Part shown: one piece after another, positions 591 to 18,969 of the stretch
Position numbering within the stretch: position 1 is the stretch's first letter
Layout: each line of letters begins with the position of its first letter
Assembly (NCBI GenBank): GCA_026991575.1
Contig: JALXBF010000114.1
Coordinates: forward strand, 1-53,544
Length of the DNA stretch: 53,544 bases
Direction of reading: 5' to 3'
From: Planctomycetota bacterium
GTDB taxonomy: Bacteria > Planctomycetota > Planctomycetia > JALXBF01
Notes under the pieces: model-generated
Seen by the model: only the letters and a program-made list of their open reading frames with translations
Database searches by the model: none
Told to the model about the DNA's origin: nothing
Translations under genes and position numbers: made by a program

Positions 591-2375
591 ATGCCGGAGC
601 CGGCCGGGACGAGCAGTGAGACGACGTCGGGTGCCCGCCGCTACAGCAAGGCTCCGGCTGCAGCCTGGCTTGCTATTGCGGCAGCGGCCATGCTCACCCT
701 GCTTGCCCTGTGGCCGGCACCTGTGCTTGCGCTCGGAGGCGCTGTGGTGCCGGCCGGGTTCTGGATGCCGGAGCGTGTGGGCCGAGTCCGCATCGTCTTG
801 GCGGCATACGCCGCGGCGCTTGCTGTGGTTGGGCTCCTGCGGCTGCGTCTACCGCCGGCCCATCCGGCTGTCCGGCCTGCCGCTCATTTTCTCCAGCCGG
901 CGCGCGTGTGGGCCGTGGCCGGCCTGTTGGTCCTTGCTGCAGCAGCGGTCCGGGGACGCTACGTGAATGCCCCTCTCGACTACGACGAGGCGTACAGCTT
1001 TTTGCATTACGCCCGCGGTTCGCTGCTGGAAGCCCTGGCACGTTACGACTCCACCAACAACCACCTGCTCAACAGCATGTTCATGTGGCTTGGGCATCGG
1101 CTCTTCGGTCCGAGCGAGTGGGCACTGCGGCTGGCGGCGTTCTTGCCCGGCATCCTGCTGCCGGGGCTCATCTACCTGGCTGCCCACCGGCTGGGCCAGA
1201 CGGTCGGTGCCCTTGCGGCCGGCTTGATCGCGGTATGGTCGCCGGCGCTGGTCGAGTATGCCACGAATGGACGGGGGTACTCGTGGGCAGCGGCGGCCAC
1301 TGCGGCTGCTGTGATTGTCCTGGCGCGCAACGGGCTGGGGAGTCGTCGCGATCGACTGTTGCTTACCTCGGCCGCCGTCTCGGCGCTATGGGCCGTGCCG
1401 GTGTGCCTGCCACTGGTGTTCGGACTGGCCGTGTGGCTGGTGCTGGCACGATCGTCTGAGCCGCTCGCGCCGCGTTTGCGCGACGTGCTGAGCTGGCTGG
1501 TGGTCGCGGGCATGGTGGGCGCGGCCTTGTACGTGCCTGGGTACGTTGCCCTGGGCTTACACGCAGCACGCAACCCGTTCGTACAGCCGCTGGCCCCGTC
1601 GCTGTGGCTGGTTCGTTTCCCACTGGCGGTTGCCGAGGGGTTGGGAATCAGCCTGGTGGAGCTACCTATGGACGGCGTGGCGGCCAAGCTGCACGGGGGG
1701 GCCGTATCGGTGTGGCGGGACTGGATTGCACACGGGACGACCGTGACCGCTGCGATTGCCGCATACGTGCCGGTTGCCGCAGCGCCGTTGCTCGTGCGCG
1801 ACAGGCGGCGGTGGTTGCTGCCGGCGCTGTTGCTGGCGGGCTACCTGCTTTTGTTCGCAGCCGCTCGGCTGGCGCCCCCGCCGCGCGTGTTCGTGCCGAT
1901 GCTGCCATTGCAGCTGCTGCTTGTCGGTGCTGTGCTGGATGTGCTGCTGAAGCCTTTAGCAGACAGCCGAGCGTTTGTGGCCGGGCTCACGAGCGTCGTT
2001 CTCCTGGCCACGGCTGGCTTCTACGCCGCCCGGCCGTTGCCGTACCGGCCGAGCGTTCAGTGCTGGCGGTTGGATGTGCCTGAAGCCGTGGGCATCGTGA
2101 AGCAGCATGCACACGGGGCACCGTTCTGCGTGCTTGCGTCGCTGCCGGCCGACATGCCGCTGCGCTTCTACCTGGAGCGGTCCCGGCTCAACTGGCGCTG
2201 GGGGGCAGACCGGGACTGCGGGCAGTGCTTCCTGCTGTGGCTCGGGGCTACCGCCGTTGAACAGGATGCGGTGCGGCGCGATCCGGTGCTGCGCAGCCAC
2301 GCCGACGAGCTGGCGCGGCGGCGGCCGGTCATGCTGACCAAGCTACGCCGAGCGGTCCTTTACCGCATGGATTGA
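591..2375 (+). CDS. Polytopic membrane glycosyltransferase, GT39/ArnT-like
   Basis: The 594-residue protein has a short polar N-terminus and then roughly a dozen hydrophobic segments rich in Leu, Ala and Val. The acidic motif DYDEAYS at residues 130-136 lies in the first external loop, where GT-C enzymes that use polyprenyl-phosphate sugars carry their catalytic Asp/Glu. A second conserved-looking stretch (NGRGYSWAAA) is typical of the same superfamily. About 130 soluble residues close the protein. The inferred role is transfer of a sugar from a lipid carrier to lipid or protein outside the cytoplasmic membrane. No Shine-Dalgarno sequence is visible before the ATG, so it may be translationally coupled to the preceding gene. 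The gene converges on the next one. Confidence 0.75.
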   Translation: MPEPAGTSSETTSGARRYSKAPAAAWLAIAAAAMLTLLALWPAPVLALGGAVVPAGFWMPERVGRVRIVLAAYAAALAVVGLLRLRLPPAHPAVRPAAHFLQPARVWAVAGLLVLAAAAVRGRYVNAPLDYDEAYSFLHYARGSLLEALARYDSTNNHLLNSMFMWLGHRLFGPSEWALRLAAFLPGILLPGLIYLAAHRLGQTVGALAAGLIAVWSPALVEYATNGRGYSWAAAATAAAVIVLARNGLGSRRDRLLLTSAAVSALWAVPVCLPLVFGLAVWLVLARSSEPLAPRLRDVLSWLVVAGMVGAALYVPGYVALGLHAARNPFVQPLAPSLWLVRFPLAVAEGLGISLVELPMDGVAAKLHGGAVSVWRDWIAHGTTVTAAIAAYVPVAAAPLLVRDRRRWLLPALLLAGYLLLFAAARLAPPPRVFVPMLPLQLLLVGAVLDVLLKPLADSRAFVAGLTSVVLLATAGFYAARPLPYRPSVQCWRLDVPEAVGIVKQHAHGAPFCVLASLPADMPLRFYLERSRLNWRWGADRDCGQCFLLWLGATAVEQDAVRRDPVLRSHADELARRRPVMLTKLRRAVLYRMD

Positions 2376-2396
2376 GCAGCGTGGAAGGGAAGCTAC

Positions 2397-3662
2397 TCAC
2401 TGCAGGGGCCGTGCCGCACGGGCAGCGTCGCGCCCCAGACGATCCATGAACCGGCACATGTCCCGATCGAGCTGTTCGATGTTTGTCCCGAAACAGAGCG
2501 CGAAGTCCCTGAGCCGTTCCTCTTCGGAGTAGCCCTGCAGCACCTTCCGCTCGACCATCTTCTTCAGGTACTTCTGAAACTGTCTCGGGCGTCTCTCGGC
2601 CAGGTAGTACGTCAGAGCCCACGCTTCAGAGTACGCCTGCAGCACGTTGGCACCCTCCTTGAACGGCTCATCACTTGCCAGCAGCAGGACGATCTGACCT
2701 TCGGTCCGGTCGGCCCGATGTTTCTGAAAGGTTTCCCACCGCCGGTAGTTGAACGCCGGCTGGCCTGTGCCGGTGCCGTTCGCAGCAATCGCCGGGGATT
2801 CAAAGTACATAGCCAGTCCTTCCAGCAGCCATTTGGGATAGGCTGCGTACCGCTTCAGGAAGCCGGTGTTGTACACAAGCTGATGGGTGGCTTCGTGGAA
2901 CAGGGTGCTCAGGTTGTGCCAGTCGTTTTCCGCTTTGAGGCTGAAAGCAACGCGGTTGGATTCCAGTGAGTAGTAGCCGGCAAACTCCGGTGCGATGTCC
3001 CGGATACCGTCCATGCGCGCGTAGGACTCGAAGTCTTCGCGCTTGTCGAAGAGCAGCAGGACCAGGGGGAAGGGGGGGCGAGCCAGCGGCAGCCCACGCC
3101 GACTCGCGAAACGGCAATACGCCGCGTAGTGACGCTTCAGCAGCCGGCAGAGCCGACGGGTCGAGTCTCGATCGGCCGTGCTCCCGACCAGCCACGGGCC
3201 GGTTTTTGTCCAGCGGAACCGCCAGGGTAGTTCACGTTGCAGCTGCTGGCGCACTTCGTCGGCCGACATCGGCTGAAACGGGGTGTTCAGCGTGTAGACA
3301 CCGTTTAGCTCCCGGGTGGGCACGATCGTCAGGCTGCCGTCACGCTCGAGCACGATCAGGTGGCCGCCAGCCAGGCCCCAGTCCAGACCGGTGAGTTTCA
3401 TCGATTCGGTGACGACGCGAACGTGCTGCAGGGAAGCCAGGAACCCAAGCGACGGTCGAGCGGACCGGCCTACCGGAGCTGCCGTCCGAACGGGCCGGGA
3501 GACGGTGGACGATTTCAGAACCCACCGTACGGTGCCGCTTCGGGGCGATGCAACGCGAGGTGCTTTTTCCCTGGGGTCGCGGGCATTGAGCGAGCGGGCC
3601 TGGCACAGAAGCGACAAGAAGGCAGTGGCGAGCGCTACGAGCCAGTAGCTACGTCTTGCCAT
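2397..3662 (-). CDS. Secreted DUF1570-type gluzincin metallopeptidase-like protein
   Basis: The reading frame is open upstream to 3908, but that extension overlaps the neighbouring DUF72 gene. The ATG at 3662 is followed by a clear signal peptide (MARRSYWLVALATAFLSLLC), so it was chosen as the start, giving 421 residues. The motif HEATH at residues 256-260 followed by WLLEGLAMYFE (Glu281) fits a gluzincin zinc site with two His ligands and a downstream Glu. DUF1570 is a family I associate mainly with Planctomycetes; its substrates are unknown to me. It is the last gene of a minus-strand run with DUF72 and gamma-glutamyltransferase, 100 bases after DUF72. Peptidase activity is inferred from the metal site only. 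Confidence 0.75.
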   Translation of the reverse strand: MARRSYWLVALATAFLSLLCQARSLNARDPREKAPRVASPRSGTVRWVLKSSTVSRPVRTAAPVGRSARPSLGFLASLQHVRVVTESMKLTGLDWGLAGGHLIVLERDGSLTIVPTRELNGVYTLNTPFQPMSADEVRQQLQRELPWRFRWTKTGPWLVGSTADRDSTRRLCRLLKRHYAAYCRFASRRGLPLARPPFPLVLLLFDKREDFESYARMDGIRDIAPEFAGYYSLESNRVAFSLKAENDWHNLSTLFHEATHQLVYNTGFLKRYAAYPKWLLEGLAMYFESPAIAANGTGTGQPAFNYRRWETFQKHRADRTEGQIVLLLASDEPFKEGANVLQAYSEAWALTYYLAERRPRQFQKYLKKMVERKVLQGYSEEERLRDFALCFGTNIEQLDRDMCRFMDRLGRDAARAARPLQ

Positions 3663-3762
3663 TTTTGCCCCCGTTGCTGGCGATCGGTGCAGCCGACGGT
3701 GCGATGTGCCTGCTACGGAAGCATAGCTCACGATCTGGCCGGCGTCGGTCACCGCAGGCCAC

Positions 3763-4476
3763 CTACCGGTGCCGGAGCAGCGTTCGGAAAGCCAGGGCAT
3801 CGTCCCACATGGAGACGTTGTTGAAGAAGCAGTATGTGGTGCGGGCACGGCAGAGCCGGAGCAACCGTTGCAGGTCGTCTGGCGTGTACCGATAGCGGTA
3901 GCCACCAATGCCGTGGAGGCGGAAGTAATTCAGCTTTCGATGCACCGGCGTTCGCTGGAACGGATCAACGACATGGATTAGTTGCAGTTCCCGGCAAAGC
4001 TGGCGGACCAGATCATCCGTCCACCCCTCACCACGCGGCTCCCAGCCGAAGAGCAACCCGCCGCGATCTAAGCGGCCAAAAAACTTCCTCAGGTTGGCGA
4101 TGTGTTCGTCGGTAGGCGTGAACCGGGCCGGACACTGGAAGAGCACGACGGTGGCCCGCAGGGTGGTGGCGGCCTGTTGGGTTCGATGCCATGCGTTCCA
4201 GACCACGGACGTGTCGCGGAAGAAGCCGGCCAGGGCCCGGTCTGCAGGCGGCAGCTTGGAACGGCGATACGTGGGGCTGTCCGGCGGGTGCGTGATGGCC
4301 TGGTAGGCTTTCACGGTGAACTCGAACGTTTCCGGTGCCTCGGCGCGCCAGCGGGCAAGCGTCTCTGGCTGCGGTGGTTCGTAGAAGGTTTGCTGTACCT
4401 CAACGGCGTCGAAGCTCTCGTAACAGCGGTGCCGCGCCTTTGGGAAGCCGCACGTGCCAACAACGATACGTGCCAT
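3763..4476 (-). CDS. DUF72 (YecE-like) TIM-barrel protein
   Basis: The 237-residue protein begins MARIVVGTCGF and contains F-x-V-K-A-Y (EFTVKAYQAITH), the WEPRGEGW segment and the late LNYFRLHG and TYCFFNN elements that mark the DUF72/YecE family. The family folds as a TIM barrel and has no firmly assigned reaction that I know of. The ATG at 4476 lies 15 bases after the gamma-glutamyltransferase stop codon, so the two are probably cotranscribed. The protein has no signal peptide or membrane segment and is expected to be cytoplasmic. The length is normal for the family. Confidence 0.85.
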   Translation of the reverse strand: MARIVVGTCGFPKARHRCYESFDAVEVQQTFYEPPQPETLARWRAEAPETFEFTVKAYQAITHPPDSPTYRRSKLPPADRALAGFFRDTSVVWNAWHRTQQAATTLRATVVLFQCPARFTPTDEHIANLRKFFGRLDRGGLLFGWEPRGEGWTDDLVRQLCRELQLIHVVDPFQRTPVHRKLNYFRLHGIGGYRYRYTPDDLQRLLRLCRARTTYCFFNNVSMWDDALAFRTLLRHR

Positions 4477-4491
4477 AGCCCGTTGCCCTCA

Positions 4492-6201
4492 TCAGAAGGC
4501 CAACGCGCTGCCTTCGATCCGCCGGTCCGCCTCGCCGATGAACAGTCCACTGCTCGGATCGATCATGGCTGAGTGTGCATCGCCGATGCGGCGCACCGGC
4601 ACCAGGCGGTGGCCTCTGGCCTCCAGCGCCCGGCGTAGCTGTTCCAGTTGCTCCGCGCGCTCGTACAACACTCGGTCCGGCATCCATTGGTGGTGCACGC
4701 GGGGAGCATCGACGGCCGAGCGCAGCGACATGCCAAACTCTAGAACGCCGAGCGTGATCTGGAACGAAGTGTTGATGATGGTACGACCGCCGGGGGAGCC
4801 GGTCAGCAGGAACGGCTTGCGATCACGCAGCACAATCACCGGCGTCTGCGAGCTCAGCATCCGCTTGCCTGGCTGCAGCCGGTTGGCCGGCGTGCCGATG
4901 TTGCCTGAGCGATCCGTACGGCCCGGCGTCCAGTTGAAATCGGTCATCTCGTTGTTCAACAAGAACCCACCCCCTTTGACCACCACAAGCGAGCCGTAGC
5001 TGTCCTGGAGCGTGTACGTGTTGGAGACCGCAAACCCCGAACGATCGGCCACGACGAAGTGGGTCGTGCACTTCGATTCGCTTCCGGTAAGGATGTCGGC
5101 GCCGAGTTCGTCGGACGGCGTGGCGCGGTTGAGGTCGATCGTTGCAGAGAGCCGCTTGAGGTAGCCGGGGCTGAGCAGCCGGCGCACGGGCACATGGACA
5201 AAGTCGGCATCACCCAGATAGCGCGCTCGGTCCAGATAGGCACGCCGCATGGCCTCGATCATCACGTGCAACGTATTCGGGTGCCACCGCCCCCACTTGC
5301 GGAGCGCGTAGGGCTCTACGAGCTTCAGCATCTGGCCGAGCACGATGCCCCCCGAGCTGGGCGGCGGTGGTCCGTAGACTTCGTAGTCACGGTAGCGGAC
5401 CCGGATCGGAGGACGAATGTGGGCGCGATAGCCGGCCAGATCCTCAGCGGTGATCAGCCCGCCGCCTCGGGCCATCTCCTCCAAGATGAGCCGTGCGATT
5501 GGCCCGCGGTAGAAAGCGTCCGGGCCGTGCTCCGCCAGCAGGCGCAAAGTGTTGGCCAGATCGGGCAGCCGCAGCCGATCACCCGCTTGCCACGGCCGTC
5601 CGTCCGGCCTACCGTAGACCCGTTTCATCTCAGCAGACGCTTCCGGATGCTGGAGGATGGCGTTTAGTGACCGAGCAAGCGGGGCACGGACCTGGAACCC
5701 TTCTTCTGCCAACCGGATGGCCGGCTCAAGCAGGCGGGCCCATGGCAGGGAGCCGAAGCGGCGGTGCGCAAGTGCGAAGCCCCGCACCGTGCCGGGCACG
5801 CCCACCGACAGATGCCCTCGGCTCCGAGCCGTGAAACCTCTCATCCGCTCGTAACTGGCGGCCCGAGGCGCGGTCTCGCGATATTCGACCGTGTACACCT
5901 GGGCGGACTGCGGATCGTACACCATCATGAAACCGCCGCCGGCCAGGTTCCCCGCGGCTGGAAATGTCACCGCCAGGGCAAAGCCCACGGCGATGGCTGC
6001 ATCGACCGCGTTGCCGCCGGCTTTCAAAATCTCAATGCCGGCAGCGGTCGCTTCAGGGGACACAGAGACGACCACACCGTTCCGCCCGCGGGCCTGCAGC
6101 GCCTGGTGCGAGCGATCCCCCGGCTCTGCGCCGACACGGGCCGGGACCATGAACACGTCGAGCACCAGCACAGCCAGCAATGCGATTCCGAATCGATTCA
6201 T
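4492..6201 (-). CDS. ggt: Gamma-glutamyltransferase (glutathione hydrolase)
   Basis: This is an N-terminal-nucleophile hydrolase made as a precursor that cleaves itself into two subunits and removes the gamma-glutamyl group of glutathione and related amides. The ATG at 6201 was preferred over an upstream one at 6297 because a GGAG ribosome site precedes it and a signal peptide follows (MNRFGIALLAVLVLDVFM). The large-subunit signature GGNAVDAAIA, NLAGGGF and the PPPSSGG segment are all present. The autoprocessing Thr is Thr379 in CTTHFVV, aligned with E. coli Thr391 of TTHY, and LLNNEMTDF follows as expected. The length of 569 residues is typical. It is expected in the periplasm. DUF72 follows closely. 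Confidence 0.93.
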   Translation of the reverse strand: MNRFGIALLAVLVLDVFMVPARVGAEPGDRSHQALQARGRNGVVVSVSPEATAAGIEILKAGGNAVDAAIAVGFALAVTFPAAGNLAGGGFMMVYDPQSAQVYTVEYRETAPRAASYERMRGFTARSRGHLSVGVPGTVRGFALAHRRFGSLPWARLLEPAIRLAEEGFQVRAPLARSLNAILQHPEASAEMKRVYGRPDGRPWQAGDRLRLPDLANTLRLLAEHGPDAFYRGPIARLILEEMARGGGLITAEDLAGYRAHIRPPIRVRYRDYEVYGPPPPSSGGIVLGQMLKLVEPYALRKWGRWHPNTLHVMIEAMRRAYLDRARYLGDADFVHVPVRRLLSPGYLKRLSATIDLNRATPSDELGADILTGSESKCTTHFVVADRSGFAVSNTYTLQDSYGSLVVVKGGGFLLNNEMTDFNWTPGRTDRSGNIGTPANRLQPGKRMLSSQTPVIVLRDRKPFLLTGSPGGRTIINTSFQITLGVLEFGMSLRSAVDAPRVHHQWMPDRVLYERAEQLEQLRRALEARGHRLVPVRRIGDAHSAMIDPSSGLFIGEADRRIEGSALAF

Positions 6202-9257: not shown

Positions 9258-9935
9258 CTAGTCGCACTGGCATTCACCCCGCAGGCCTTCGAGCCCTTCG
9301 CGCACCAGCCAGGGCACCATCAGCAGGGCCGCCACCGGATCAGTCCACCACCAGCCAAACGCTGCGTTGCCTGCCAACCCAAGGAAAAGCGTCAGCGACA
9401 GATAGGCACATGCCAGCGTCTCTTTTGCTTCCGCACGCAGCGCCCGGCTGCCCAACTCGTCGGCACAGCGCAGCTTTGCCCATGCTACCAGCGGCATCAC
9501 AATCAGCGAGAACAGTGACAGAGCGATACCCAGCCAGGATTCTTCCGGGGCTTGGCCGCCCAGCAGCACGTAGAGCGACTGGACGGTGACGTAGGCTGCC
9601 AGTGCCAGGAAGGTTATGCCCACGATCCGGTGCACCCGACGTTCCAGTCGCTCGCTACTTGCCTCTAACTCAGGCCGCAACAAAGCCTTGATTCGGGGCA
9701 GCACGGCAAAGGCAGCCACCGCTTCGATCATGCTGTCCAGTCCAAAGCCCACCAGTACGATGCTGGCAGCGCGAATGCCGAGCCAGACGGCAAGCGCCGC
9801 CTCGGCCAGGTTGTACGCCAGCGTCACGGTGACAAGCCACCATGCTCGCCTGGCGTAGGTGACCGTTTTCGAGGAGGGCACGACGGCAGTAATGGCGCGA
9901 TCTCCGGTCTGTTCGGCACACGTTTGCCGTGCCAC
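9258..9935 (-). CDS. Cation diffusion facilitator-like transporter
   Basis: The 225-residue protein has about five or six membrane helices. The pairs GFGLDSMIEAVAA (after the second helix) and EAKETLACAYLSLTL (fifth helix) replace the HxxxD metal sites of classical CDF proteins with Asp/Glu residues; I recall a branch annotated only as cation transporter that has exactly these motifs. It lacks the C-terminal cytoplasmic domain of full-length CDF proteins, but ends in CQC, which might bind metal. A GTG at 9935 was taken as start; the ATG codons further in would remove little. It lies on the opposite strand between floA and nfeD and is divergent from nfeD. Confidence 0.78.
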   Translation of the reverse strand: MARQTCAEQTGDRAITAVVPSSKTVTYARRAWWLVTVTLAYNLAEAALAVWLGIRAASIVLVGFGLDSMIEAVAAFAVLPRIKALLRPELEASSERLERRVHRIVGITFLALAAYVTVQSLYVLLGGQAPEESWLGIALSLFSLIVMPLVAWAKLRCADELGSRALRAEAKETLACAYLSLTLFLGLAGNAAFGWWWTDPVAALLMVPWLVREGLEGLRGECQCD

Positions 9936-10138
9936 GGCGGTGGCCGTGGCCGCCTCTGGGCGAGCAAGGCTACTCGGTTCCGGTTGCCCCTGCGGTGCGC
10001 ATCTGCTCGGGCGGTGCGACGGTGTTATCTTACGTGGCGGGTATCGGTCCGTGCCGGCATCATAACGCCCGTCCGCGACCGACCACCGGCTCCAGCCGCT
10101 TAGAATGGAACAAACCGCTCAGGAGCTGGCCAAGCCAC

Positions 10139-12382
10139 ATGGGACGGAACAGGTCGGAACCAAGCCGGAGGGGGGGCTTCGGGACTGCGGCGCAGCTTGC
10201 CCTTTGCGTGCTCGTAGCGGTCTGGACTACGGTCGCCACGGCTGCTGCTGCCGCTGCCCAGGAGACTGGTCACAAATCGGGCGAGGCGAAGAAGGAGCCA
10301 ACAACTGGTACATTCATCACGATCCGTGGCCCGGTCACTGGTCGAACGATTGCCTATCTCCGCGCCCGTCTGCGTGATGCGCTGCAGGGCGGTGCCGAGC
10401 TGATCGTGCTGGCCGTGCACGGTAGCGGCGACAGCGAGTTCGAGGAGTGTTTGAAGGCGGCACGGATCATTGCTGGGGTGCAGGGTGCGGTGACGGTGGC
10501 GTATGTGGAAGGCGAGTTGGGTGGCCATGAGTTGATGCTTGCCCTGGCGGCCGATCGTATCGTGCTCCACCCTAACGCGACGTTGGGCCCGATCCTGTCT
10601 CGCCGCGAGCCCCCCGGCATCGTGCGCATCTATCGGACGGCGTACGATGAGCTGCTGAAGCAGAAAGGGCGCGATGCGTTTGTGCCGGTCGTCCGCGCCA
10701 TGATCGATCCATCGGTGCGGTTGCTGTATGTGAAGGTCGCCGAGGGAAACCGGGGGCTTCTGGTTACCGATAGCGACCGTGACCGGGTGTTGGCGGGCAA
10801 GACGATCGTTTCTTCTGATGTCATTGTCGATGTCAACCAGCTGCTCAAGCTCGACGCTCGCCGCGCGCGGCTGTGGGGTCTTGCTGAGGCGCTCTACGAA
10901 AGCCGGGAGGCGGTGGCCGAAGCGTACGGCCTGCCGCTGGAAGTAAGCCGGCGCGAACGGAAACTACTCGACCGCGTTGTGGCCGCGCGGGTCGAGGTCA
11001 GCGGGGTTGTGGACTACCGGATGCGCGATTACCTGCAACGCACGTGTCGTGAGTTGCGCAGCCGCGGTGTCAACCTAATGTTCTTTGTGATCGACAGCCC
11101 GGGAGGGCTTGCGTTCGTCGGTTTGGAGCTTGCGCATTTCATCGACAAGGACCTGACAGACGTGTTGTCGGTTGCGTACATCGAGGGCGAGGGACTCAGT
11201 GCCGCGGCGTTCATTGCCTTCGGCTGTGACGAGATCGTCATGAGTCCGCACGCGCGGCTGGGCGATTGCGGCGTGCTGGAGGCGGGTTGGGGCGTCGTGC
11301 GCTATGCCCCGGAGAAAGTGCTCACGGACGTCAAGCAGCAGCTTGAGCTACTGGCAAAGTCCAACGGTTATCCAGTGGCCTTGATGCATGCGTTTGTGGA
11401 CAAGGACATCGTGGTTGTCGAGGCGTTGAACCGGCGCACCGGGGCACGAGGGTTCTTCCGCGTGGATGAGCTGGACAAGAAGCGGTGGCAGGTCATACGC
11501 ACGGTGAAGCGGAAGGGCGAGTTCCTGGAAGTGGACGCCGAGAAGGCGATCGAATATCGGCTGGCGGTCGCAACAGCCGGTAACTTCGATCAGCTGTGTG
11601 AACTGTATGGCGTGGATCCGGCCCGCGTCATCCGCGCGTCACCCACCTGGATCGATGCCCTCGTCTACTGGCTAACCCGCCCGTTCGTCCGCTTCTTGCT
11701 GATGACGATCGGCATCATCGCGCTGTACACCGAGCTGAAGCTACCAGGCATTGGACTGCCGCTGATCATTTCCCTGATCTCGTTCACCTTGCTGTTCTGG
11801 AGCCTGGTGTTGCATGGGACGGCGACCGCGCTGGAGATTCTTCTGTTTCTGCTCGGCATCGTGCTCATCGCGGTTGAGATTCTCTTGGTGCCCGGTGCCG
11901 GGGTCTTTGGGGTATCGGGCCTGCTGCTGGTCGTCGTGTCGCTGATCCTGGCCAGCCAGAGCTTCCTGTGGCCGGCCAACGAGGCGGAGTGGAATGAGCT
12001 GTTGACGAACATCATCGCGGTGGCGGGCAGCATCTTCACGGTCTTATTGGGTATGGCCCTGCTGGCCCGCTTCTTGCCCGGCATCCCGGTTCTCGGACAT
12101 CTTGCGCTCGAACCCCCCACGCCAGCACCCGCGACAGGCCCCGCAGCCGAACCGGGCACCGGCTCGGCCTCGCCTGGGGCCGCTACGGTGGGTGCGGAGC
12201 TTGTCGGTGCGGTCGGAGTGGCACTGACGCCGCTGCGTCCAGCCGGTCGGATCCGCATCGGTGAGGAGCTCTACGACGTGGTCACCAGGGGGGAGTTCGT
12301 GGAGGCGGGCCAGAGTGTGCAGGTGGTTGAGATTCAGGGGAATCACATCGTCGTCCGCCCGATCCGGTCAGCTGGTGCTTGA
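10139..12382 (+). CDS. nfeD: NfeD-family membrane serine protease, long form with two ClpP-like domains
   Basis: The frame is open from 9929, but the ATG at 10139 is followed by a basic and then hydrophobic signal segment (LALCVLVAVWTTVATAAAAA), and AGGAG lies 13 bases upstream, so it was chosen (747 residues). Two ClpP/crotonase-like repeats follow. The second has FFVIDSPGG and EGEGLSAAAFIAFGCDEIVM, with the serine of the SAAAFIA segment as probable nucleophile. Four or five membrane helices occupy about 515-650, and a beta-barrel NfeD domain (VGVALTPLRPAGRIRIGEELYDVV) ends the protein. NfeD proteases act with FloA/stomatin proteins. The first protease repeat lacks an obvious Ser motif (ELGGHELMLALAADRIVLHP), so it may be structural. 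Confidence 0.85.
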   Translation: MGRNRSEPSRRGGFGTAAQLALCVLVAVWTTVATAAAAAAQETGHKSGEAKKEPTTGTFITIRGPVTGRTIAYLRARLRDALQGGAELIVLAVHGSGDSEFEECLKAARIIAGVQGAVTVAYVEGELGGHELMLALAADRIVLHPNATLGPILSRREPPGIVRIYRTAYDELLKQKGRDAFVPVVRAMIDPSVRLLYVKVAEGNRGLLVTDSDRDRVLAGKTIVSSDVIVDVNQLLKLDARRARLWGLAEALYESREAVAEAYGLPLEVSRRERKLLDRVVAARVEVSGVVDYRMRDYLQRTCRELRSRGVNLMFFVIDSPGGLAFVGLELAHFIDKDLTDVLSVAYIEGEGLSAAAFIAFGCDEIVMSPHARLGDCGVLEAGWGVVRYAPEKVLTDVKQQLELLAKSNGYPVALMHAFVDKDIVVVEALNRRTGARGFFRVDELDKKRWQVIRTVKRKGEFLEVDAEKAIEYRLAVATAGNFDQLCELYGVDPARVIRASPTWIDALVYWLTRPFVRFLLMTIGIIALYTELKLPGIGLPLIISLISFTLLFWSLVLHGTATALEILLFLLGIVLIAVEILLVPGAGVFGVSGLLLVVVSLILASQSFLWPANEAEWNELLTNIIAVAGSIFTVLLGMALLARFLPGIPVLGHLALEPPTPAPATGPAAEPGTGSASPGAATVGAELVGAVGVALTPLRPAGRIRIGEELYDVVTRGEFVEAGQSVQVVEIQGNHIVVRPIRSAGA

Positions 12383-12592
12383 GCCGGACCGGATCCCAAC
12401 CTGGCTCCCGCCCAACGCCGCCACCCTCGGGCATCTTCCTCGGAAGAGGACCGCGTACGCCGGGTTGTCTCGATCGGTTGGTGCGCTGATCAATACGATC
12501 GCGCGCGCAGGATCGCTGGCTAGCTCTGCCGCCGGAGTCCGGCCTGGCTCGGATCTGCCTGCCAAGAGGCGAGCCGCCGATGGAGGGTGCCG

Positions 12593-13342
12593 ATGAAGGT
12601 TCTGCCCGTGCTGGATCTCAAAGGGGGCAAAGCCGTGCACGCGAAGGGGGGAGCACGCGACCGTTACGAGCTTGTGCACGGGGTCTTTGGCGACGGGAGC
12701 GACCCGGTCGCTCTGGCCGAGCGCATCCGCCGGCGGCTTGGCCTCGAGGAGCTCTACGTCGCCGACCTGGACGCACTGCAGGGGCAGGGCGATCAGAGCA
12801 GCATCGTTGCTGAACTGACCAGCCGCGGTTTCCGAGTCTGGCTGGATGCGGGGGTGCGCAGTGCGGCGGATCTTGCCCGTGTCGCGGCCGCTCAACCCGC
12901 CGTGCTGATCTTTGCGCTGGAGACCGTCCCAGACCGGCAGCGCACGGCCGAGTTGCGCCGCCAGTGGCTTGCAGATTATGCCCCGGAAGAGGGGGATGTG
13001 GCCTTCAGCATCGACCTCCAGGCCGGCCGGCCGGTGCCCAATCGGTTCCTGCAGGAGGCTGACCCGGTGGCGGTTGCTCAAGCCGCACGGGCGATTGGTT
13101 TCCGCCACCTGATCCTGCTGGACCTGGCCGCCGTCGGATCGGCCCGCGGCATTGCGGCTGCAGCGCTGGTGGCGCCGATCCGAACACACTGCCCGGAGGT
13201 GCGGCTCTATGGCGGCGGGGGTGTGCGTGGCCCCGAGGACCTGGCCGTTGCCTGCCGGGCCGGTTTTGACGGCTTGCTGATTGCAACTGCTTTGCACAAC
13301 GGGCAAATCGGTCGCGACAAGCTACAATTGCTGGAGACGTGA
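12593..13342 (+). CDS. HisA-related TIM-barrel protein
   Basis: The protein begins MKVLPVLDLKGGKAVHAKGG, like HisA/HisF, and retains ELYVADLDALQG and VRLYGGGGVRGPEDL, but the substrate loops differ from true HisA (phosphoribosylformimino-AICAR-P isomerase). No histidine gene is nearby. Relatives of this kind (the HisA-like group in methanogens, methylotrophs and Planctomycetes) are found with genes for tetrahydromethanopterin-linked C1 metabolism; this is from memory and the function stays inferred. The ATG at 12593 sits 6 bases after GGAGG and is preferred to the GTG at 12587. The length is 249 residues. It lies 105 bases before the WXG100-like gene, so cotranscription is possible without implying a shared function. 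Confidence 0.75.
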   Translation: MKVLPVLDLKGGKAVHAKGGARDRYELVHGVFGDGSDPVALAERIRRRLGLEELYVADLDALQGQGDQSSIVAELTSRGFRVWLDAGVRSAADLARVAAAQPAVLIFALETVPDRQRTAELRRQWLADYAPEEGDVAFSIDLQAGRPVPNRFLQEADPVAVAQAARAIGFRHLILLDLAAVGSARGIAAAALVAPIRTHCPEVRLYGGGGVRGPEDLAVACRAGFDGLLIATALHNGQIGRDKLQLLET

Positions 13343-13447: not shown

Positions 13448-13720
13448 ATGCCCCAGGCGATTGTCGACCCGGAAGAGCTGCGCCGCTTTGCCCAGCGGCT
13501 CAGGCAGTTTAACGAACAGCTGCAGCAGCAGATGGCCACGCTGCATGCCCAGCTGAGGGATCTCGGTGCCACGTGGCGCGACCAGGAGCATCGCAAGTTC
13601 ATGGAGGAATTCGAGCAGACGATGAAGGCCCTGCAACGCTTCGTGCACGCGGCGGAGGAGCATATTCCGTTCTTGCTACGGAAGGCGGAACGGGCTGAGG
13701 AGTATCTGCAGCAGCGGTAA
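13448..13720 (+). CDS. WXG100-like small helical protein
   Basis: The 90-residue protein is predicted to be two helices with a turn at LGATWRDQEHRKF (Trp43). Size, central tryptophan and the following F-x-x-x-F match the WXG100/Esx fold, but the glycine of WxG is an Asp (W-R-D). Esx proteins are dimeric substrates or components of type VII secretion. I see no C-terminal YxxxD/E secretion signal. GGGGAGAG precedes the ATG. It starts a set of four genes ending in an FtsK/EssC-like ATPase, which supports a role in a secretion-like machine. Alternatively it could be a structural subunit of a complex that does not export anything. Confidence 0.7.
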   Translation: MPQAIVDPEELRRFAQRLRQFNEQLQQQMATLHAQLRDLGATWRDQEHRKFMEEFEQTMKALQRFVHAAEEHIPFLLRKAERAEEYLQQR

Positions 13721-13769
13721 CGACGACGATGCCCGCCGCCGGATGGGGCCTCTGCGCGGTGAGAAGGTC

Positions 13770-14342
13770 ATGGCCCGGAACCAGGCTCACGTAGCGTCGA
13801 TTGAGGCGTTGGAGGACTTTCGGGGCAAGGTGGCTGCCTTCTGCGAGCTTGCCCGCAACACGGCGGAGCTGGCGTTGCTGGAGGCGCGGAAATTCGAGAA
13901 CGCCCTCGCTGACGAACAACGCTACTGGGTTGCCCGGTTGAAACGGCTGGAAAACGAGCTTGCGCTAGCCAAAGCAGAGTTGCATCGCGTTCGACTGGCC
14001 ACGCCCAGGGGTGAGACCCCACGCGACGGCGACGTACGACTCGTCATCCGCCGGATTAACGACAAGATCGCGCATGCGGAAGCCGCACTGCGCGAGCTGT
14101 CAGCACTGCGCAGCGCAGCCGCAAGCTGCCGCGAGAGCCTGCGCAAGGAGCTGGCACAGCTAATCGAGCTCGTAGGCAAGGAGCCGGTACCGGCAGTCCA
14201 ACGACTCACCGCCCTGCTGGACCGTCTGACGCAGTACCTGGCCGTTGCGCCGCCGCAGACCGGTGCGACGACTCAGGGAGTTCGCCATGGTGCAGAAGAG
14301 AAGGGGGGCGGCGAGGGAGGGGAATCGCATGGCGGCGCTTGA
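13770..14342 (+). CDS. Coiled-coil protein of the WXG100/FtsK-like locus
   Basis: I do not recognise a named family. The 190-residue protein from the ATG at 13770 (preceded by GAGAAGG) is almost entirely helical with heptad-like Leu/Ala spacing (LARNTAELALLEARKFENAL, RVRLATPRGETP turn, then INDKIAHAEAALREL). There is no signal peptide or membrane segment. The last 25 residues are Gly-rich and low in complexity, and overlap the next gene. Being sandwiched between two WXG100-like genes suggests a chaperone, a spacer or an LXG-like partner. The overall shape, long antiparallel helices with a linker, also resembles the helical N-terminal regions of type VII substrates, but no toxin domain follows. 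Confidence 0.65.
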   Translation: MARNQAHVASIEALEDFRGKVAAFCELARNTAELALLEARKFENALADEQRYWVARLKRLENELALAKAELHRVRLATPRGETPRDGDVRLVIRRINDKIAHAEAALRELSALRSAAASCRESLRKELAQLIELVGKEPVPAVQRLTALLDRLTQYLAVAPPQTGATTQGVRHGAEEKGGGEGGESHGGA

Positions 14343-14562
14343 ATCGGAAGCAACCAAATTGAAACGCGCTTTGACGGATCTGCGCCACCATTGGGAGGAC
14401 CTACAGCCGATCTGGCGCGACCGGGCGTCGCGCAGTTATGAGCAGGAGCTGTTGGAGCCGCTGATCGAAGCCACCGAACGCGCGATCCGTGCACTGGAAC
14501 AGGCCGCGGCCATGCATGCCCGACTGCGCGAACGAATCCGGCAGCTGCGCGAACAGGGTTGA
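14329..14562 (+). CDS. Second WXG100-like small helical protein
   Basis: From ATG 14329 (GGAGG 8 bases upstream) the product has 77 residues; an alternative ATG at 14287, with AGGGAG 6 bases upstream, would give 91 residues and put the key tryptophan at position 43, the same place as in the first WXG100-like protein. The helix-turn-helix centre reads LQPIWRDRASRSYEQEL, again W-x-D rather than W-x-G, followed by an aromatic residue. The gene overlaps the coiled-coil gene by 14 bases and lies 30 bases before the ATPase gene. Two such proteins in one locus recall the EsxA/EsxB heterodimer. The shared W-R-D motif suggests the two are paralogues. Confidence 0.68.
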   Translation: MAALESEATKLKRALTDLRHHWEDLQPIWRDRASRSYEQELLEPLIEATERAIRALEQAAAMHARLRERIRQLREQG

Positions 14563-14592
14563 GCACGACAGGAGAACTGTCCCTAAGTCGGT

Positions 14593-17500
14593 ATGGCCAC
14601 GACCCACGACCTCTTACAGCCGCTACACACGTCTGTGCTCGAGCTGATCGAGCAGTTCCGGTCGCTCGTGGCCTGGCGGCATGCACGCGAACGAGAGCTC
14701 CAGCGGCAAGCGCGTGAGAGCCAGGAGGCGCTTGCCCGCGAGCAACGTCAACGGACACGGAACATCGTCCGGCGGGTGGACGCGGCCATCGAGCAGCTAC
14801 GGCAGCGCGATGCCGAGCTGCGCGGCAAGGTGGCCGAGATTGAACGCCGCTATCACGCCCAGTTCAAAGAGCTGAAGCAACTGCTCAAGGCGCGGTACCG
14901 GCAGTTCCACCGTGCCGTCGAGCAGGCTCGTAAGTCCTACCGGGACGCCGCCTGGGAATCGACCACGATCCATGAGGCGACCAAGACCGGTGTCCGGGCC
15001 GACCTGGAAACCTACGGTAGCCAGCTCGAGGTTCTCGGCCGGCGGGCCGCGGCTGTCCGAGAGCACGCCATGCGGATTGCCGCGGACTGGTCAATCCCTC
15101 AGCTGGACGTCCCCGAGCACGGCCGCCCGCCTGCCGAAACAGCAGCCAAGCTCCGATCTGACCTGACCGCCGCCCAGGACCAGGCTGACGACCTCTTGCA
15201 GCGGGCCGGTTCGTGGCCTCGGCTGGGCACGGCCGGATGGCTGGCACTGGCCATCGGAGCATCGGTGGCCGTGGCAGTGACGGTAGCCGTCGGGGTCACG
15301 GTCCGTTGGCTGCCCGCTTTGCTGGGCTTTCCCCTGGTGCTGGTGCTGCTTGCAGGGTTGGCGTACCTAGTTCACTGGGTCGTACAGCGCAACCGCGTGC
15401 GGCGACTGCTCTGCGAAGCGGTGTCACTGGCCGCCTGGGTCGAGCGGAACCTGATTGCCTGTCGCCGCATGATGGAGTTGGAGGGACAGGAGCGGATCCG
15501 GCGCGATGCAGAACGACACCGCAGCGAGCTGAACCGGCTCCGGGCCCGTTTGCGTGAGGAGCTGCTGGCTGCACGCGACCGTTACCGCGCCGAGGGCCGC
15601 CGCATCCGCGACGGTGAGCTGCTGGACTTGCGCCGCATCCAGAGCGAGTTGCTCACGGCCCGCCAGGAAGTCGATGGCTTCCTGGAGCGGCGGCTGGCCG
15701 AGCTGCGTCGGGGGCGGTCGCGCGAACTGTTGGCCGCAAAGGCGTGGTACCGTGACCAGCAACAACGACGCCGCCTGCTGGCCGAGCAAGCACGCCGTGA
15801 TCTGGCAGCAGAGTTCGCCAGAAAGCTGCACTCGCTGCGCAACGACACCGCGAAGCTCTGGCAGGCCTGCCGGGAACGCTTCCCCGTGTGGCATCGGTTC
15901 GTGCCCGAACGGTGGCAACCAGCCGAAGAACCGGCTGAGTACGTGTTCATCGGACAAATGGACTACGACCTCATCGAACACGCCGGGGCACGGGAGGGGT
16001 GGTTTGCCGACCGGGCTGATGCCTGCTTTTGCCTGCCAGCGCTCGTGCCACTGCCGCCATCGGGTGCTCTTATGCTAGACGTCCCGCCGCAGCGCCACCG
16101 TGACGCAGTTGGCTGGCAGCGAAACTTCATTGCGCGTTACCTGCAAGCAGTGCCACCTGGCCGCTTCCGCCTCCTGCTGCTGGACCCGGCGTTCCTGGGG
16201 GATCCGTTCTCCGGACTCATGCACCTGGCCGACTATGATCGCAGCGTCGTGTCGGGCCGCATCTGGAGTGAGCCGCGGGCGATCGATCAGCAGCTGGAAA
16301 GGCTCCAGGAACAGCTCGAGACCGTAATCCAGGCATTCTTACGCGATCGGTTCGCCACGTTACGCGAGTACAACCGATCGGCAGGGGAGGTTGCCGAACC
16401 GTACCGCCTGGTGGTGCTGACCGACTGCCCCGACTCGCTGCCGGAGTCCGCTCTGCACCGGCTCCACGCGATTGCCACGAACGCGACCCGCTGTGGTGTC
16501 ACGCTGCTGCTATTGCGGCCGGCGCGCTCCTCGCCGCTTGGGGCGGTTGAGGAAGAGGTGCTCGGGCCCGTTTCGCTCAGCGGTCAACTTGACTACCCGC
16601 AACTCCGCTTCGACGAAGTCGCTGGTGAGCGGCTGCCACCTGTGGAACTGGAAGCGGCACCGCCCAGCGAGCTCTTCACCCGGCTGGTGCACCGGGTTGG
16701 GGCACTGGTTGCCGAAGCGGGCCGCGTGGAGGTGCCCTTTGAGCGGATCCTCCCTGAGCCTGCACAGTGGTGGCAAGCTTCCACACGCGACGGCCTTGCC
16801 GTGCCCCTGGGGGTAATCGGGGCGCAAGCCGTGCAGGAACTGCAACTCGGCCGCGGTACCGCACAGCACGTGCTCGTGGCGGGGCGCACCGGCTCGGGCA
16901 AGTCTAACCTGCTTCACGTGCTGATCACCTCGGCAGCACTCAAGTACAGCCCGAACGAATTGCTGTTGTATCTGGTCGACTTCAAGAAGGGGGTCGAGTT
17001 CAAAGCGTACGCCAGCTACGAGTTGCCACATGCTCGGGTGGTAGCGATCGAGAGCGAACGTGAGTTCGGCCTGAGTGTCCTGCAACAACTCGATCACGAG
17101 CTGCAGCGACGCGGTGAGCTGTTCCGCGCGGCCGGAGTCCAGGACCTGCCCTCCTACCGCAGGGCACGCCCCAATGAACCGATGCCCCGGATCCTGCTGA
17201 TCGTGGACGAGTTCCAGGAGTTCTTTGTCGAGGACGATCAGATTGCCCAGCAGGCTTCGCTGCTGCTGGACCGGCTCGTGCGCCAGGGACGTGCCTTCGG
17301 CATGCATGTGCTACTCGGGTCGCAGACGCTTGGCGGGGCATACTCGCTTGCCCGAAGCACGGTCAGCCAAATGGGTGTACGCATCGCGCTGCAATGCAGT
17401 GAAGGCGATGCGCATTTGATCCTGAGCGAGGACAATCCGGCGGCGCGCCTGCTGAGCCGCCCGGGCGAAGCGATCTACAACGACGCCAACGGACTGGTGG

Positions 17501-18498
17501 AAGGCAACCGGCGGTTTCAGATCGCGTGGCTGCCGGCGCCGGTGCGCGACCGCTACCTGGCCGAAGTGCGCCGCTTGGCGGAACAGGCACAGTGGCATCG
17601 CGACGTCCCGATGCTGGTCTTTGAGGGCAATGTGCCGGCCGATCTTGCTCGCAATGATGAGCTTTCCGATCTGCTTGCTCGACCCTGGCAGCCGGACGCT
17701 CCGCAACAGGCGCTGCAACTCTGGTTGGGTGAGTCGGTCGCGCTGCCGAGGCCGGTTGCGGCAATGCTTGAACCGCGCGCCGGTAGCAATCTGCTGCTGG
17801 TCGGCCAGGATGCGGTCGGTGCAGCCGGTATCCTGGTCTCCTCATTGCTGAGCGCAGCGGCACAGCGACCGCCTGCCGGCAGCGATGGGCTACGCATCTA
17901 CATCGCCGACGAAGCGGCTCCTGAACGTTGCCACCGCCAGCTCTGGCGCCAGCTCGCAGAGTTCCTGCCCCACCAGGTCGAGCTTCTTGGCTCCGGGCGG
18001 GCCGTCGAGGAGCTCGTGCTTCGGCTCGCCGACGAGCTGGACCGTCACGAGAGCGACGGTGCGGTAACGCTCGTCGTTCTCTATGACATCGCGCGGATCC
18101 GCGCCCTGCGGGCCGCCGATGAGCTGTTCAGCTTCACGGACACCGGGGGGCAGGACGGCGCAGACGTGTCGCGTCGCTTCCGCAAACTCTACGAGGAGGG
18201 GCCGGAGCGAAACGTGCACCTGCTGGTATGGTGTGACACGGCGGCTGGTGCCCAGCGGGTCTTCGGCCGCAGCGGGGTGCGAGAGTTTGGCCTGCGGGTC
18301 GTCTTCCAGATGAGCGCCAACGACTCCACCACCTTGATCGACTCCCCGGCCGCAGCCAGGCTGGGGGTGTACCGGGCGCTGTTCTACGACGAGGACCGAG
18401 GGACGCTGGAGAAGTTCCGACCGTATGCCGTGCCGGAACTGGTACAGCTCAAAGAGCTCGCACGGCGCATTGCCGCCCGCTTTGCGGCGGAGAGGTGA
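14593..18498 (+). CDS. FtsK/SpoIIIE (EssC/EccC-like) membrane ATPase
   Basis: The 1301-residue protein has N-terminal coiled coils (about 20-120), two membrane helices (about 210-265), a second coiled-coil stretch (285-400) and then FtsK/SpoIIIE-type modules. The central module is intact: Walker A GRTGSGKS at 764-771, Walker B RILLIVDEFQEFF with Asp872-Glu873, and a typical SQTLGG sensor. A further module near 1060-1290 has a degenerate P-loop (VGQDAVGAA) and Walker B, as non-catalytic modules of EssC/EccC often do. Such ATPases drive type VII secretion and bind Esx proteins. A plain DNA translocase is less likely because the gamma domain is missing and WXG100-like genes lie directly upstream. 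Confidence 0.85.
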   Translation: MATTHDLLQPLHTSVLELIEQFRSLVAWRHARERELQRQARESQEALAREQRQRTRNIVRRVDAAIEQLRQRDAELRGKVAEIERRYHAQFKELKQLLKARYRQFHRAVEQARKSYRDAAWESTTIHEATKTGVRADLETYGSQLEVLGRRAAAVREHAMRIAADWSIPQLDVPEHGRPPAETAAKLRSDLTAAQDQADDLLQRAGSWPRLGTAGWLALAIGASVAVAVTVAVGVTVRWLPALLGFPLVLVLLAGLAYLVHWVVQRNRVRRLLCEAVSLAAWVERNLIACRRMMELEGQERIRRDAERHRSELNRLRARLREELLAARDRYRAEGRRIRDGELLDLRRIQSELLTARQEVDGFLERRLAELRRGRSRELLAAKAWYRDQQQRRRLLAEQARRDLAAEFARKLHSLRNDTAKLWQACRERFPVWHRFVPERWQPAEEPAEYVFIGQMDYDLIEHAGAREGWFADRADACFCLPALVPLPPSGALMLDVPPQRHRDAVGWQRNFIARYLQAVPPGRFRLLLLDPAFLGDPFSGLMHLADYDRSVVSGRIWSEPRAIDQQLERLQEQLETVIQAFLRDRFATLREYNRSAGEVAEPYRLVVLTDCPDSLPESALHRLHAIATNATRCGVTLLLLRPARSSPLGAVEEEVLGPVSLSGQLDYPQLRFDEVAGERLPPVELEAAPPSELFTRLVHRVGALVAEAGRVEVPFERILPEPAQWWQASTRDGLAVPLGVIGAQAVQELQLGRGTAQHVLVAGRTGSGKSNLLHVLITSAALKYSPNELLLYLVDFKKGVEFKAYASYELPHARVVAIESEREFGLSVLQQLDHELQRRGELFRAAGVQDLPSYRRARPNEPMPRILLIVDEFQEFFVEDDQIAQQASLLLDRLVRQGRAFGMHVLLGSQTLGGAYSLARSTVSQMGVRIALQCSEGDAHLILSEDNPAARLLSRPGEAIYNDANGLVEGNRRFQIAWLPAPVRDRYLAEVRRLAEQAQWHRDVPMLVFEGNVPADLARNDELSDLLARPWQPDAPQQALQLWLGESVALPRPVAAMLEPRAGSNLLLVGQDAVGAAGILVSSLLSAAAQRPPAGSDGLRIYIADEAAPERCHRQLWRQLAEFLPHQVELLGSGRAVEELVLRLADELDRHESDGAVTLVVLYDIARIRALRAADELFSFTDTGGQDGADVSRRFRKLYEEGPERNVHLLVWCDTAAGAQRVFGRSGVREFGLRVVFQMSANDSTTLIDSPAAARLGVYRALFYDEDRGTLEKFRPYAVPELVQLKELARRIAARFAAER

Positions 18499-18567: not shown

Positions 18568-18969
18568 TCAGTCGGAACTGAGCGACTGTTCCAGCACGTG
18601 CTCTTCCACGTAGATCGGCACGCCAAGCGTCACGGCGATCGCGATGGCGTCGCTGGGGCGGCTGTCCACCTCGATCAACTCGCCGTCGCGGCGGATCATG
18701 AGCTTGGCGTAATAGGTATGGTCCCGCAAGTCGTGGATGTAAATGTGCTCCAGTTCGCCGCCCATGCTCTCGATCACGTTCGTGACCAGGTCATGAGTAA
18801 GCGGGCGTGGTGTACGCAGTCCCTTGACCCGTCGATCGATGGACACGGCCTCGAACAGCCCGATCACGATCGGGAAGGTACGTTCTCCGCCCACCTCGCG
18901 CAGGTAGATGATCTGCTGCTCCCAGAGCTCGCTGATCACAATCCGGCAGAGTTCCATCTGGACCGCCAC
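18568..18969 (-). CDS. Bifunctional nuclease family protein (BFN/DUF151)
   Basis: The 133-residue protein matches the BFN/DUF151 family throughout: FPIVIGLFEAVSI near the start, RPLTHDL in the middle and the hallmark EVDSRPSDAIAIAVTLGVPIYV near the end. Family members have been reported to carry DNase and RNase activity, or to serve as small regulatory domains; physiological targets in this group are unknown. A GTG at 18969 is taken as the start because GGGAGA lies 8 bases upstream; ATG at 18957 would shorten the protein by four residues. A TATAAT element lies 60 bases upstream on the same strand. It is probably monocistronic. Confidence 0.88.
   Translation of the reverse strand: MAVQMELCRIVISELWEQQIIYLREVGGERTFPIVIGLFEAVSIDRRVKGLRTPRPLTHDLVTNVIESMGGELEHIYIHDLRDHTYYAKLMIRRDGELIEVDSRPSDAIAIAVTLGVPIYVEEHVLEQSLSSD

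What the first reader, a model, noticed from the sequence alone, without database searches (positions are those of the whole stretch)
13448..18498. Type VII secretion-like locus with W-x-D variants of WXG100 proteins
Two small two-helix proteins with a central Trp flank a coiled-coil gene and precede an EssC/EccC-like ATPase. Both small proteins read W-R-D instead of WxG and share an aromatic shortly after. Other core T7SS genes (EccB, EccD, EccE, YukD, EsaA) are absent. This could be a minimal or distinct diderm version of the system.
Basis: partly seen in the sequence, partly recalled or inferred. Interest (0 to 1): 0.62.

Follow-up and report, generated by a model that had tools for sequence, protein, structure and literature searches.

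The report
W-x-D type VII-like cassette in planctomycetes
A planctomycete carries a compact, widely inherited four-gene set that looks like a stripped-down relative of the type VII protein secretion machine of Gram-positive bacteria, and relatives of its coiled-coil gene elsewhere carry DNA-cutting toxin-like domains, so it is probably a protein-export device that has not been described as such in this phylum.

Summary
At 13448-18498 lie w1 (WXG100 hairpin), cc (coiled coil), w2 (second hairpin) and an EccC/EssC-like ATPase. It is a conserved cassette: 65 loci keep the order w1-cc-w2-ATPase on one strand, and in 392 Planctomycetota genomes w1 and ATPase co-occur almost perfectly (59 both; 3 and 1 alone). 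W-x-D is the family rule (w1 66/66, w2 78/78). The ATPase has three FtsK-like modules, only the middle one with Walker motifs (102/102), a membrane hairpin, and T. curvata EccC as best structural match. YukD, EccB and EssB are absent.

It is not unprecedented: H. pylori HP0062 reads W-R-D beside an FtsK-like gene, and CoCoNuT-associated EssC-like operons share the plan. New here: the phylum-wide stand-alone membrane-anchored form, W-x-D as a signature, and cc as a modular carrier (nuclease-like tails in Chloroflexota and Rhodococcus; a colicin-type nuclease plus SUKH immunity at the same position in a Helicobacter plasmid).

Most likely a T7SS-like exporter in which w1 and w2 escort cc to the ATPase (about 0.6). 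Secretion is inferred. It fails several defining T7SS features, so I call it T7SS-like: a new variant of a known kind.

The parts
13448..13720 (+). w1: 90-aa WXG100-type helical hairpin with W-R-D turn; most conserved of the three small proteins
   Evidence: Pfam WXG100 48.5 bits; 66% mean column identity over 38 relatives; best solved relative H. pylori HP0062, E 4.6e-12
13574..13582 (+). W43-R44-D45 turn of w1
   Evidence: W and D 66/66 in relatives
13743..14342 (+). cc: 199-aa coiled-coil protein (probable start 13770); conserved ~160-aa helical domain plus a variable tail
   Evidence: family in 60 of 392 Planctomycetota genomes, one copy each; model pLDDT 91.7, two long helices plus a third
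14329..14562 (+). w2: 77-aa second helical hairpin with W-R-D turn; overlaps end of cc
   Evidence: family W and D 78/78; profile match to w1
14413..14421 (+). W29-R30-D31 turn of w2
14593..18498 (+). EccC/EssC-like membrane ATPase: coil - two TM - coil - three FtsK-like modules
15241..15387 (+). predicted transmembrane hairpin of the ATPase (residues 217-265)
   Evidence: hydropathy; exactly two TM hits in the first 500 residues in 80 of 102 relatives
15880..16692 (+). degenerate first ATPase module (about residues 430-700), no Walker A
   Evidence: 0/102 Walker A; fold model
16759..17328 (+). active middle ATPase module (FtsK_SpoIIIE, residues 723-912); Walker A GRTGSGKS at 16882-16905
   Evidence: Pfam 113.8 bits; Walker A and B 102/102
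17650..18462 (+). degenerate third ATPase module (about residues 1020-1290), no Walker A
   Evidence: 0/102 Walker A; fold model

Best explanation
A minimal type VII-like protein export machine. The ATPase is anchored in the inner membrane by its helical hairpin and probably forms a hexamer like other FtsK/EccC motors, with one working ATPase module and two regulatory or binding modules (modules shown; oligomer inferred). w1 and w2 fold as W-x-D helical hairpins (w1 by homology to solved structures; w2 by profile) and pack along the long helical hairpin of cc, as the two Lap hairpins are proposed to do with LXG toxins (inferred). The ATPase recognises this complex and moves cc, with or without the hairpins, out of the cytoplasm (inferred). 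In relatives cc carries a nuclease-type tail, so the machine can deliver toxins; in the window and most Planctomycetota the tail is short and low in complexity, so there cc is probably an exported structural or adaptor protein, or an escort for cargo coded elsewhere (inferred).
For: Order and strand w1-cc-w2-ATPase in 65/65 complete loci. Genome-level co-occurrence of w1 and ATPase 59/3/1/329, Fisher p 3e-65; cc matches almost the same genomes, one copy each. Where the ATPase is elsewhere, w1-cc(-w2) can still stand together (L123, L125, L136). w1 is WXG100 by Pfam and closest to HP0062 and EsxB/EsxA structures. ATPase fold: T. curvata EccC cytoplasmic domain top hit, E 1.4e-32 over 958 alignment columns, ahead of EssC and FtsK; TM pair as in EccC/EssC. 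cc domain fused to ParB-like or restriction-nuclease-like tails in Chloroflexota and ParB-like in a Rhodococcus plasmid. A Helicobacter plasmid holds w1 - coiled coil with WHH/colicin-DNase (over cut-off) - SUKH immunity (over cut-off) - small protein - ATPase. Two hairpins plus one long helical cargo domain resembles LXG-Lap1-Lap2 (PMC9600955).
Against: No secretion data. No outer-membrane or other envelope component is conserved with the cassette. No YxxxD/E export signal (0/65 w1, 2/78 w2). In the window and most relatives cc has no enzymatic tail. The nuclease readings of the Chloroflexota tails are from sequence motifs, with only one weak sub-threshold ParB_N match. The ATPase of several Chloroflexota and plasmid homologues has no TM.
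Confidence: 0.6

Rival explanations
1. An intracellular conflict or stress machine: the ATPase is a motor that works on nucleic acid or on the coiled-coil protein inside the cell, in the setting of CoCoNuT and TerY-P operons, and nothing is exported.
For: Nearest described operons are embedded in restriction/defence loci (PMC11090510); Caballeronia homologue sits with VWA, CARF, PP2C and kinase genes; several homologous ATPases lack TM; PADLOC SspH and mad8 models hit the active module.
Against: The Planctomycetota ATPase mostly has a TM pair; no defence genes are conserved around it; a SUKH immunity gene beside the nuclease in a relative implies a toxin that also threatens kin; the fold matches EccC over all modules.
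Confidence: 0.22
2. An export system without toxins: w1, w2 and cc are structural surface or envelope proteins of planctomycetes, and the toxin-bearing versions are a derived use.
For: One copy of each gene per genome and no arsenal; 61 of 74 cc tails are short and Ala/Pro/Ser/Glu-rich; w1 far more conserved than w2 and cc.
Against: Only about 15% of sampled Planctomycetota genomes have it, so it is not part of the common envelope plan.
Confidence: 0.13
3. A DNA translocase or cell-division factor of the FtsK/SpoIIIE type with accessory coiled coils.
For: FtsK_SpoIIIE domain; Foldseek matches to the FtsK motor.
Against: FtsK model scores 26 bits against 131 for EccCa; no gamma domain or FtsK membrane domain found; EccC structure matched over all modules; partner is WXG100.
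Confidence: 0.04

Closest known systems
Helicobacter pylori HP0062 / HP0066 ('WXG100 secretion system' gene group)
   Same: HP0062 is the best solved relative of w1 and also reads W-R-D; clustered with an FtsK/SpoIIIE gene and an HNH/EndoVII nuclease
   Different: HP0062 is reported as a homodimer; the sequence of HP0066 itself was not examined here. A cat Helicobacter plasmid homologue has a shorter ATPase without the N-terminal coil-TM-coil part and a nuclease-bearing cargo
CoCoNuT type III-A associated EssC-like ATPase / WXG100 operon (PMC11090510)
   Same: three ATPase modules with only the middle one active, long N-terminal coil, two WXG100-like proteins, coiled-coil protein
   Different: described as lacking TM, with a nuclease-bearing coiled coil, and embedded between VWA genes of a restriction locus; the window version is stand-alone, has a TM pair and no nuclease
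T7SSb (EssC, EsxA, LXG toxins with Lap1/Lap2)
   Same: membrane EssC-type ATPase, WXG100 hairpins, possible two-hairpin plus long-helix cargo complex
   Different: no FHA, YukD or EssB; W-x-D not W-x-G; one competent ATPase module
T7SSa (mycobacterial ESX, EccC)
   Same: EccC is the top structural match; paired hairpins
   Different: no EccB, no above-threshold EccE (EccD and mycosin not searched); no YxxxD/E signal; long N-terminal coil
T7SSc-T7SSj (PMC11217815)
   Same: ATPase plus WXG100 as the two shared parts
   Different: reported only from Bacillota and Actinomycetota, with four NTPase domains and mostly with a ubiquitin-like subunit

Membership tests
Type VII secretion system (ESX/Ess) | EccC/EssC-type FtsK-like ATPase | tested here: met
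   EccCa 131 bits (below the equivalog cut-off); Foldseek top hit EccC E 1.4e-32
Type VII secretion system (ESX/Ess) | ATPase anchored by two TM helices | tested here: met
   hydropathy only: TM hits at 217-235 and 247-265 (a third marginal hit at 477-495 lies in the first ATPase module); exactly two hits in 80/102 relatives
Type VII secretion system (ESX/Ess) | four NTPase domains, at least two competent | tested here: not met
   three modules; Walker A only in the middle one, 102/102 versus 0/102 and 0/102
Type VII secretion system (ESX/Ess) | WXG100 protein encoded with the ATPase | tested here: met
   w1 Pfam WXG100 over cut-off; w2 under cut-off
Type VII secretion system (ESX/Ess) | W-x-G motif at the hairpin turn | tested here: not met
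   W-x-D in 66/66 w1 and 78/78 w2
Type VII secretion system (ESX/Ess) | C-terminal YxxxD/E export signal | tested here: not met
   0/65 w1, 2/78 w2
Type VII secretion system (ESX/Ess) | ubiquitin-like YukD/EsaB subunit | tested here: not met
   no match in own genome
Type VII secretion system (ESX/Ess) | subtype membrane subunits (EccB, EccE, EssB) | tested here: not met
   no EccB, no YukC/EssB, EccE sub-threshold only
Type VII secretion system (ESX/Ess) | ATPase-dependent secretion of the WXG100 protein | not testable with these tools
   needs a culture experiment
WXG100 protein family (w1) | Pfam WXG100 match over curated cut-off | tested here: met
   48.5 versus 27.3 bits
WXG100 protein family (w2) | Pfam WXG100 match over curated cut-off | tested here: not met
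   15 bits; only 5 of 39 relatives match even weakly; profile similarity to w1 only
CoCoNuT-associated EssC-like operon | three modules with only the middle one active, long N-terminal coil | tested here: met
   paper description
CoCoNuT-associated EssC-like operon | no TM in the ATPase; coiled coil fused to D-ExK nuclease; between VWA genes | tested here: not met
   TM pair present; cc tail without nuclease; no VWA/TerY neighbours
FtsK DNA translocase | FtsK gamma DNA-binding domain and N-terminal membrane domain | tested here: not met
   no such Pfam match; FtsK equivalog 26 bits versus 1566 cut-off

The most novel reading that the evidence does not exclude
The W-x-D hairpins, the cc carrier and the single-motor ATPase define a separate branch of type VII export that is spread over diderm and other phyla (Planctomycetota, Chloroflexota, Campylobacterota, Betaproteobacteria, Deinococcota, an Actinomycetota plasmid), works with only four proteins, and uses cc as an interchangeable toxin carrier, in some Chloroflexota-like loci beside membrane-anchored sensors, one of which is diversified by a retroelement.
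Probability: 0.4. Interest if true: 0.75.

Novelty: new variant of a known kind. Interest (0 to 1): 0.58.

Why it matters
Type VII secretion is treated as a system of Gram-positive bacteria and mycobacteria. A four-gene, phylum-wide relative in diderm planctomycetes, with an invariant change of the family motif and only one working motor module, would show what the irreducible core of the machine is. It also makes testable how W-x-D and two hairpins replace the known W-x-G plus YxxxD/E signal, and it gives HP0062/HP0066 of H. pylori, for which the papers read here give no tested function, a comparative setting.

Tried and rejected
Pfam/NCBIfam names alone: EccC/EssC equivalogs are well below cut-off, so filing as T7SSa/b was rejected. 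PADLOC hits (SspH, mad8 on the shared motor fold; Cmr6/PtuB on w1) are shared-fold or coiled-coil matches with no matching neighbours; rejected as defence-system calls. cc against Pfam, PDB sequences and PDB folds gives only generic coiled-coil matches (best Foldseek E 0.02). A fifth conserved gene was sought by all-against-all clustering of ORFs in 110 loci; apart from antisense and frame-shifted shadow ORFs none was found. Rfam on 12-20 kb: nothing. Literature search for T7SS or WXG100 in Planctomycetes: no description found in the held library. The phage collection gave only partial FtsK-like matches, none over 80% of the ATPase.
Full report
Where it is. The window is contig C114 of a 191-contig, 98% complete genome of 4.96 Mb. 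The phylum is Planctomycetota, inferred because relatives of the ATPase are dominated by named planctomycetes. No other member of its order is held.

The observation. Four ORFs on the + strand make up the finding: w1 13448-13720, cc 13743-14342, w2 14329-14562 and the ATPase 14593-18498. w1 passes the Pfam WXG100 cut-off; w2 does not. Both turns read W-R-D, and both have an aromatic at W+8, the position of Tyr51 in ESAT-6, which packs with Trp43 there (PMC3935865). The profile of the w2 family aligns to that of w1 across exactly this turn.

It is a conserved cassette. A collection scan gave 297 stretches encoding a relative of the ATPase, of which 80 loci were kept, plus others from whole genomes. 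With profiles built from the window proteins, 65 loci hold all four genes, always in the order w1-cc-w2-ATPase and on one strand. Clustering every ORF of 110 loci found no fifth conserved gene; the remaining large clusters are antisense or frame-shifted shadow ORFs of the ATPase. Some loci have the ATPase alone. In three such genomes checked, w1 and cc (twice with w2) stand together elsewhere (L123, L125, L136); in five others w1 has neither beside it. Over 392 Planctomycetota genomes the ATPase (62, leaving out six weak matches) and w1 (60) share 59 genomes, p 3e-65. cc is found in 60 genomes, one copy in each. Three of the four genomes in which w1 and ATPase disagree are only 61-80% complete. 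So the parts are functionally linked even where they are not physically linked.

W-x-D is the signature. In w1, Trp and Asp are invariant in 66 of 66 sequences, and in w2 in 78 of 78; the x is nearly always Arg in w1 and free in w2. The w1-like proteins of the plasmid homologues fetched later also read W-x-D: W-Q-D in Caballeronia and Deinococcus, W-G-D in a cat Helicobacter, W-K-D in Rhodococcus. w1 is much more conserved (66% mean column identity) than cc (44%) or w2 (40%) and has further invariant residues near its C-terminus, K79, A80, Y86 and L87. The YxxxD/E export signal of T7SSa is absent.

The ATPase. Three FtsK-like modules follow a long coiled N-terminus with a membrane hairpin. Walker A is present in the middle module in 102 of 102 relatives and absent from the other two in all. 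AlphaFold2 on residues 430-1301 gave pLDDT 82.7 and pTM 0.76. Foldseek against the PDB ranks the cytoplasmic domain of T. curvata EccC first (E 1.4e-32, 958 columns), then EccC/EssC ATPases 2-3, then single FtsK motors. TM-scores are about 0.4 over the whole chain, as expected if module packing differs. EccCa scores 131 bits and FtsK 26.

The coiled-coil gene. cc is predicted with high confidence (pLDDT 91.7) as two long helices and a shorter third; no specific fold match was found. Its ~160-residue domain is constant and its tail is not: 61 of 74 tails are at most 90 residues and rich in Ala, Pro, Ser and Glu. Phycisphaerae loci carry an Imm33-like domain (one over the Pfam cut-off; others below). 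Chloroflexota loci carry a ParB-like domain or a tail with the motif pattern HGFDR...ESK, which I read as a PD-(D/E)XK-type nuclease (motif readings, with only one weak sub-threshold Pfam ParB_N match). A Rhodococcus plasmid homologue has a ParB-like tail and a significant cc match, E 2.3e-7. In a Helicobacter plasmid from a cat the same position holds a coiled-coil protein ending in a WHH/colicin-DNase domain, followed by a SUKH immunity gene, a small protein and the ATPase. Its coiled coil does not match the cc profile, so that comparison rests on position, size and coil. In all these the variable domain sits on the coiled-coil protein, which points to cc as cargo or carrier.

Mechanism. Shown: the four proteins, their linkage, the predicted folds of ATPase and cc, the hairpin family of w1, the single competent motor. 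Inferred: that w1 and w2 bind cc, that the complex is recognised by the ATPase, and that cc is exported. The analogy is LXG-Lap1-Lap2, where two small helical proteins escort a long helical targeting domain (PMC9600955). What crosses the outer membrane is unknown; no candidate is conserved with the cassette. The main rival is an intracellular conflict machine, because the nearest described operons lie in CoCoNuT/TerY-P loci (PMC11090510) and because several homologous ATPases have no TM.

Comparison with what is known. HP0062 of H. pylori (3FX7) is the top solved relative of w1 and reads W-R-D; a review noted this, the ESAT-6-like features and the FtsK neighbour (PMC3397514). H. pylori pan-genome work named a WXG100 secretion system gene group and called WxG plus FtsK genes, with HP0062 and HP0066 as examples, a minimal T7SS set (PMC4978471). 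The CoCoNuT paper describes EssC-like ATPases with three modules of which only the central is active, a long coil, two WXG100-like proteins and a coiled-coil nuclease (PMC11090510). T7SSc-j are from Bacillota and Actinomycetota (PMC11217815). The window cassette is therefore a variant of a kind that has been glimpsed, not a new kind. It fails tested T7SS features (W-x-G, YxxxD/E, YukD, EccB, EssB, second motor), so I do not file it as T7SSa-j; it plausibly works like one. By the loosest published definition (an FtsK/SpoIIIE ATPase plus WXG100 substrates, PMC4010439) only the secretion itself is left untested.

Limits. MAG taxonomy labels, especially for Chloroflexota and the unnamed bacterium of L115, are as deposited. 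Genome searches used a sample. EsaA and EccD were not searched genome-wide. TM calls are hydropathy only. The profiles used to find w1, w2 and cc were iterated on the same loci, so their bit scores are not independent evidence; the order, strand and genome-level co-occurrence are. The literature library lacks most subscription papers, so Anantharaman 2012 (TerY-P) is known here only through the papers that cite it.

Noticed in passing
L115 (CAIXPS010000172.1) 1917-4743, between w2 and the ATPase: A diversity-generating retroelement inside a homologous cassette: coil-TM-FGE-sulfatase protein, reverse transcriptase, and a 113-nt repeat (2981-3093 at the gene end, 4631-4743 as template) whose 18 mismatches all fall on template adenines, P about 1e-10. 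Suggests a hypervariable membrane sensor tied to this system.
   Followed up: yes
L096 3431-7490; L061 2-1726: Other Chloroflexota loci put coil-TM-WD40 proteins (two copies), or a kinase-like/coil-TM protein and an FGE-sulfatase protein, just before a soluble short form of the ATPase, as if the membrane coil had been split off and fused to sensors.
   Followed up: partly
L078 3568-4521 (also L155): A 317-aa protein with a w1-like WXG100 domain (over the Pfam cut-off) and an extra C-terminal domain of unknown kind lies directly before the normal w1.
   Followed up: partly
L062, L084, L094, L099, L104, L109: Phycisphaerae cc proteins end in a shared ~180-aa domain that resembles Imm33, usually an immunity-type domain, here fused to the coiled coil (three of the six scanned: L062, L104 below and L084 over the Pfam cut-off).
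   Followed up: partly
L016, L069, L085, L107: Several ATPase-only loci stand just downstream of a gene for a DksA/TraR-like zinc-finger protein (ending CVSCAEKLERQFSY); the identity is from reading the sequence.
   Followed up: no
L147 and L156 (Singulisphaera acidiphila): Two cc-w2 pairs in one genome, one with and one without w1 beside it.
   Followed up: no
window 9929-13342 and 18568-18969: Flanking genes are an NfeD-type membrane protein with a ClpP/S49-like part, a HisA-like protein and a bifunctional-nuclease-domain (BFN) protein; they are not conserved with the cassette.
   Followed up: partly
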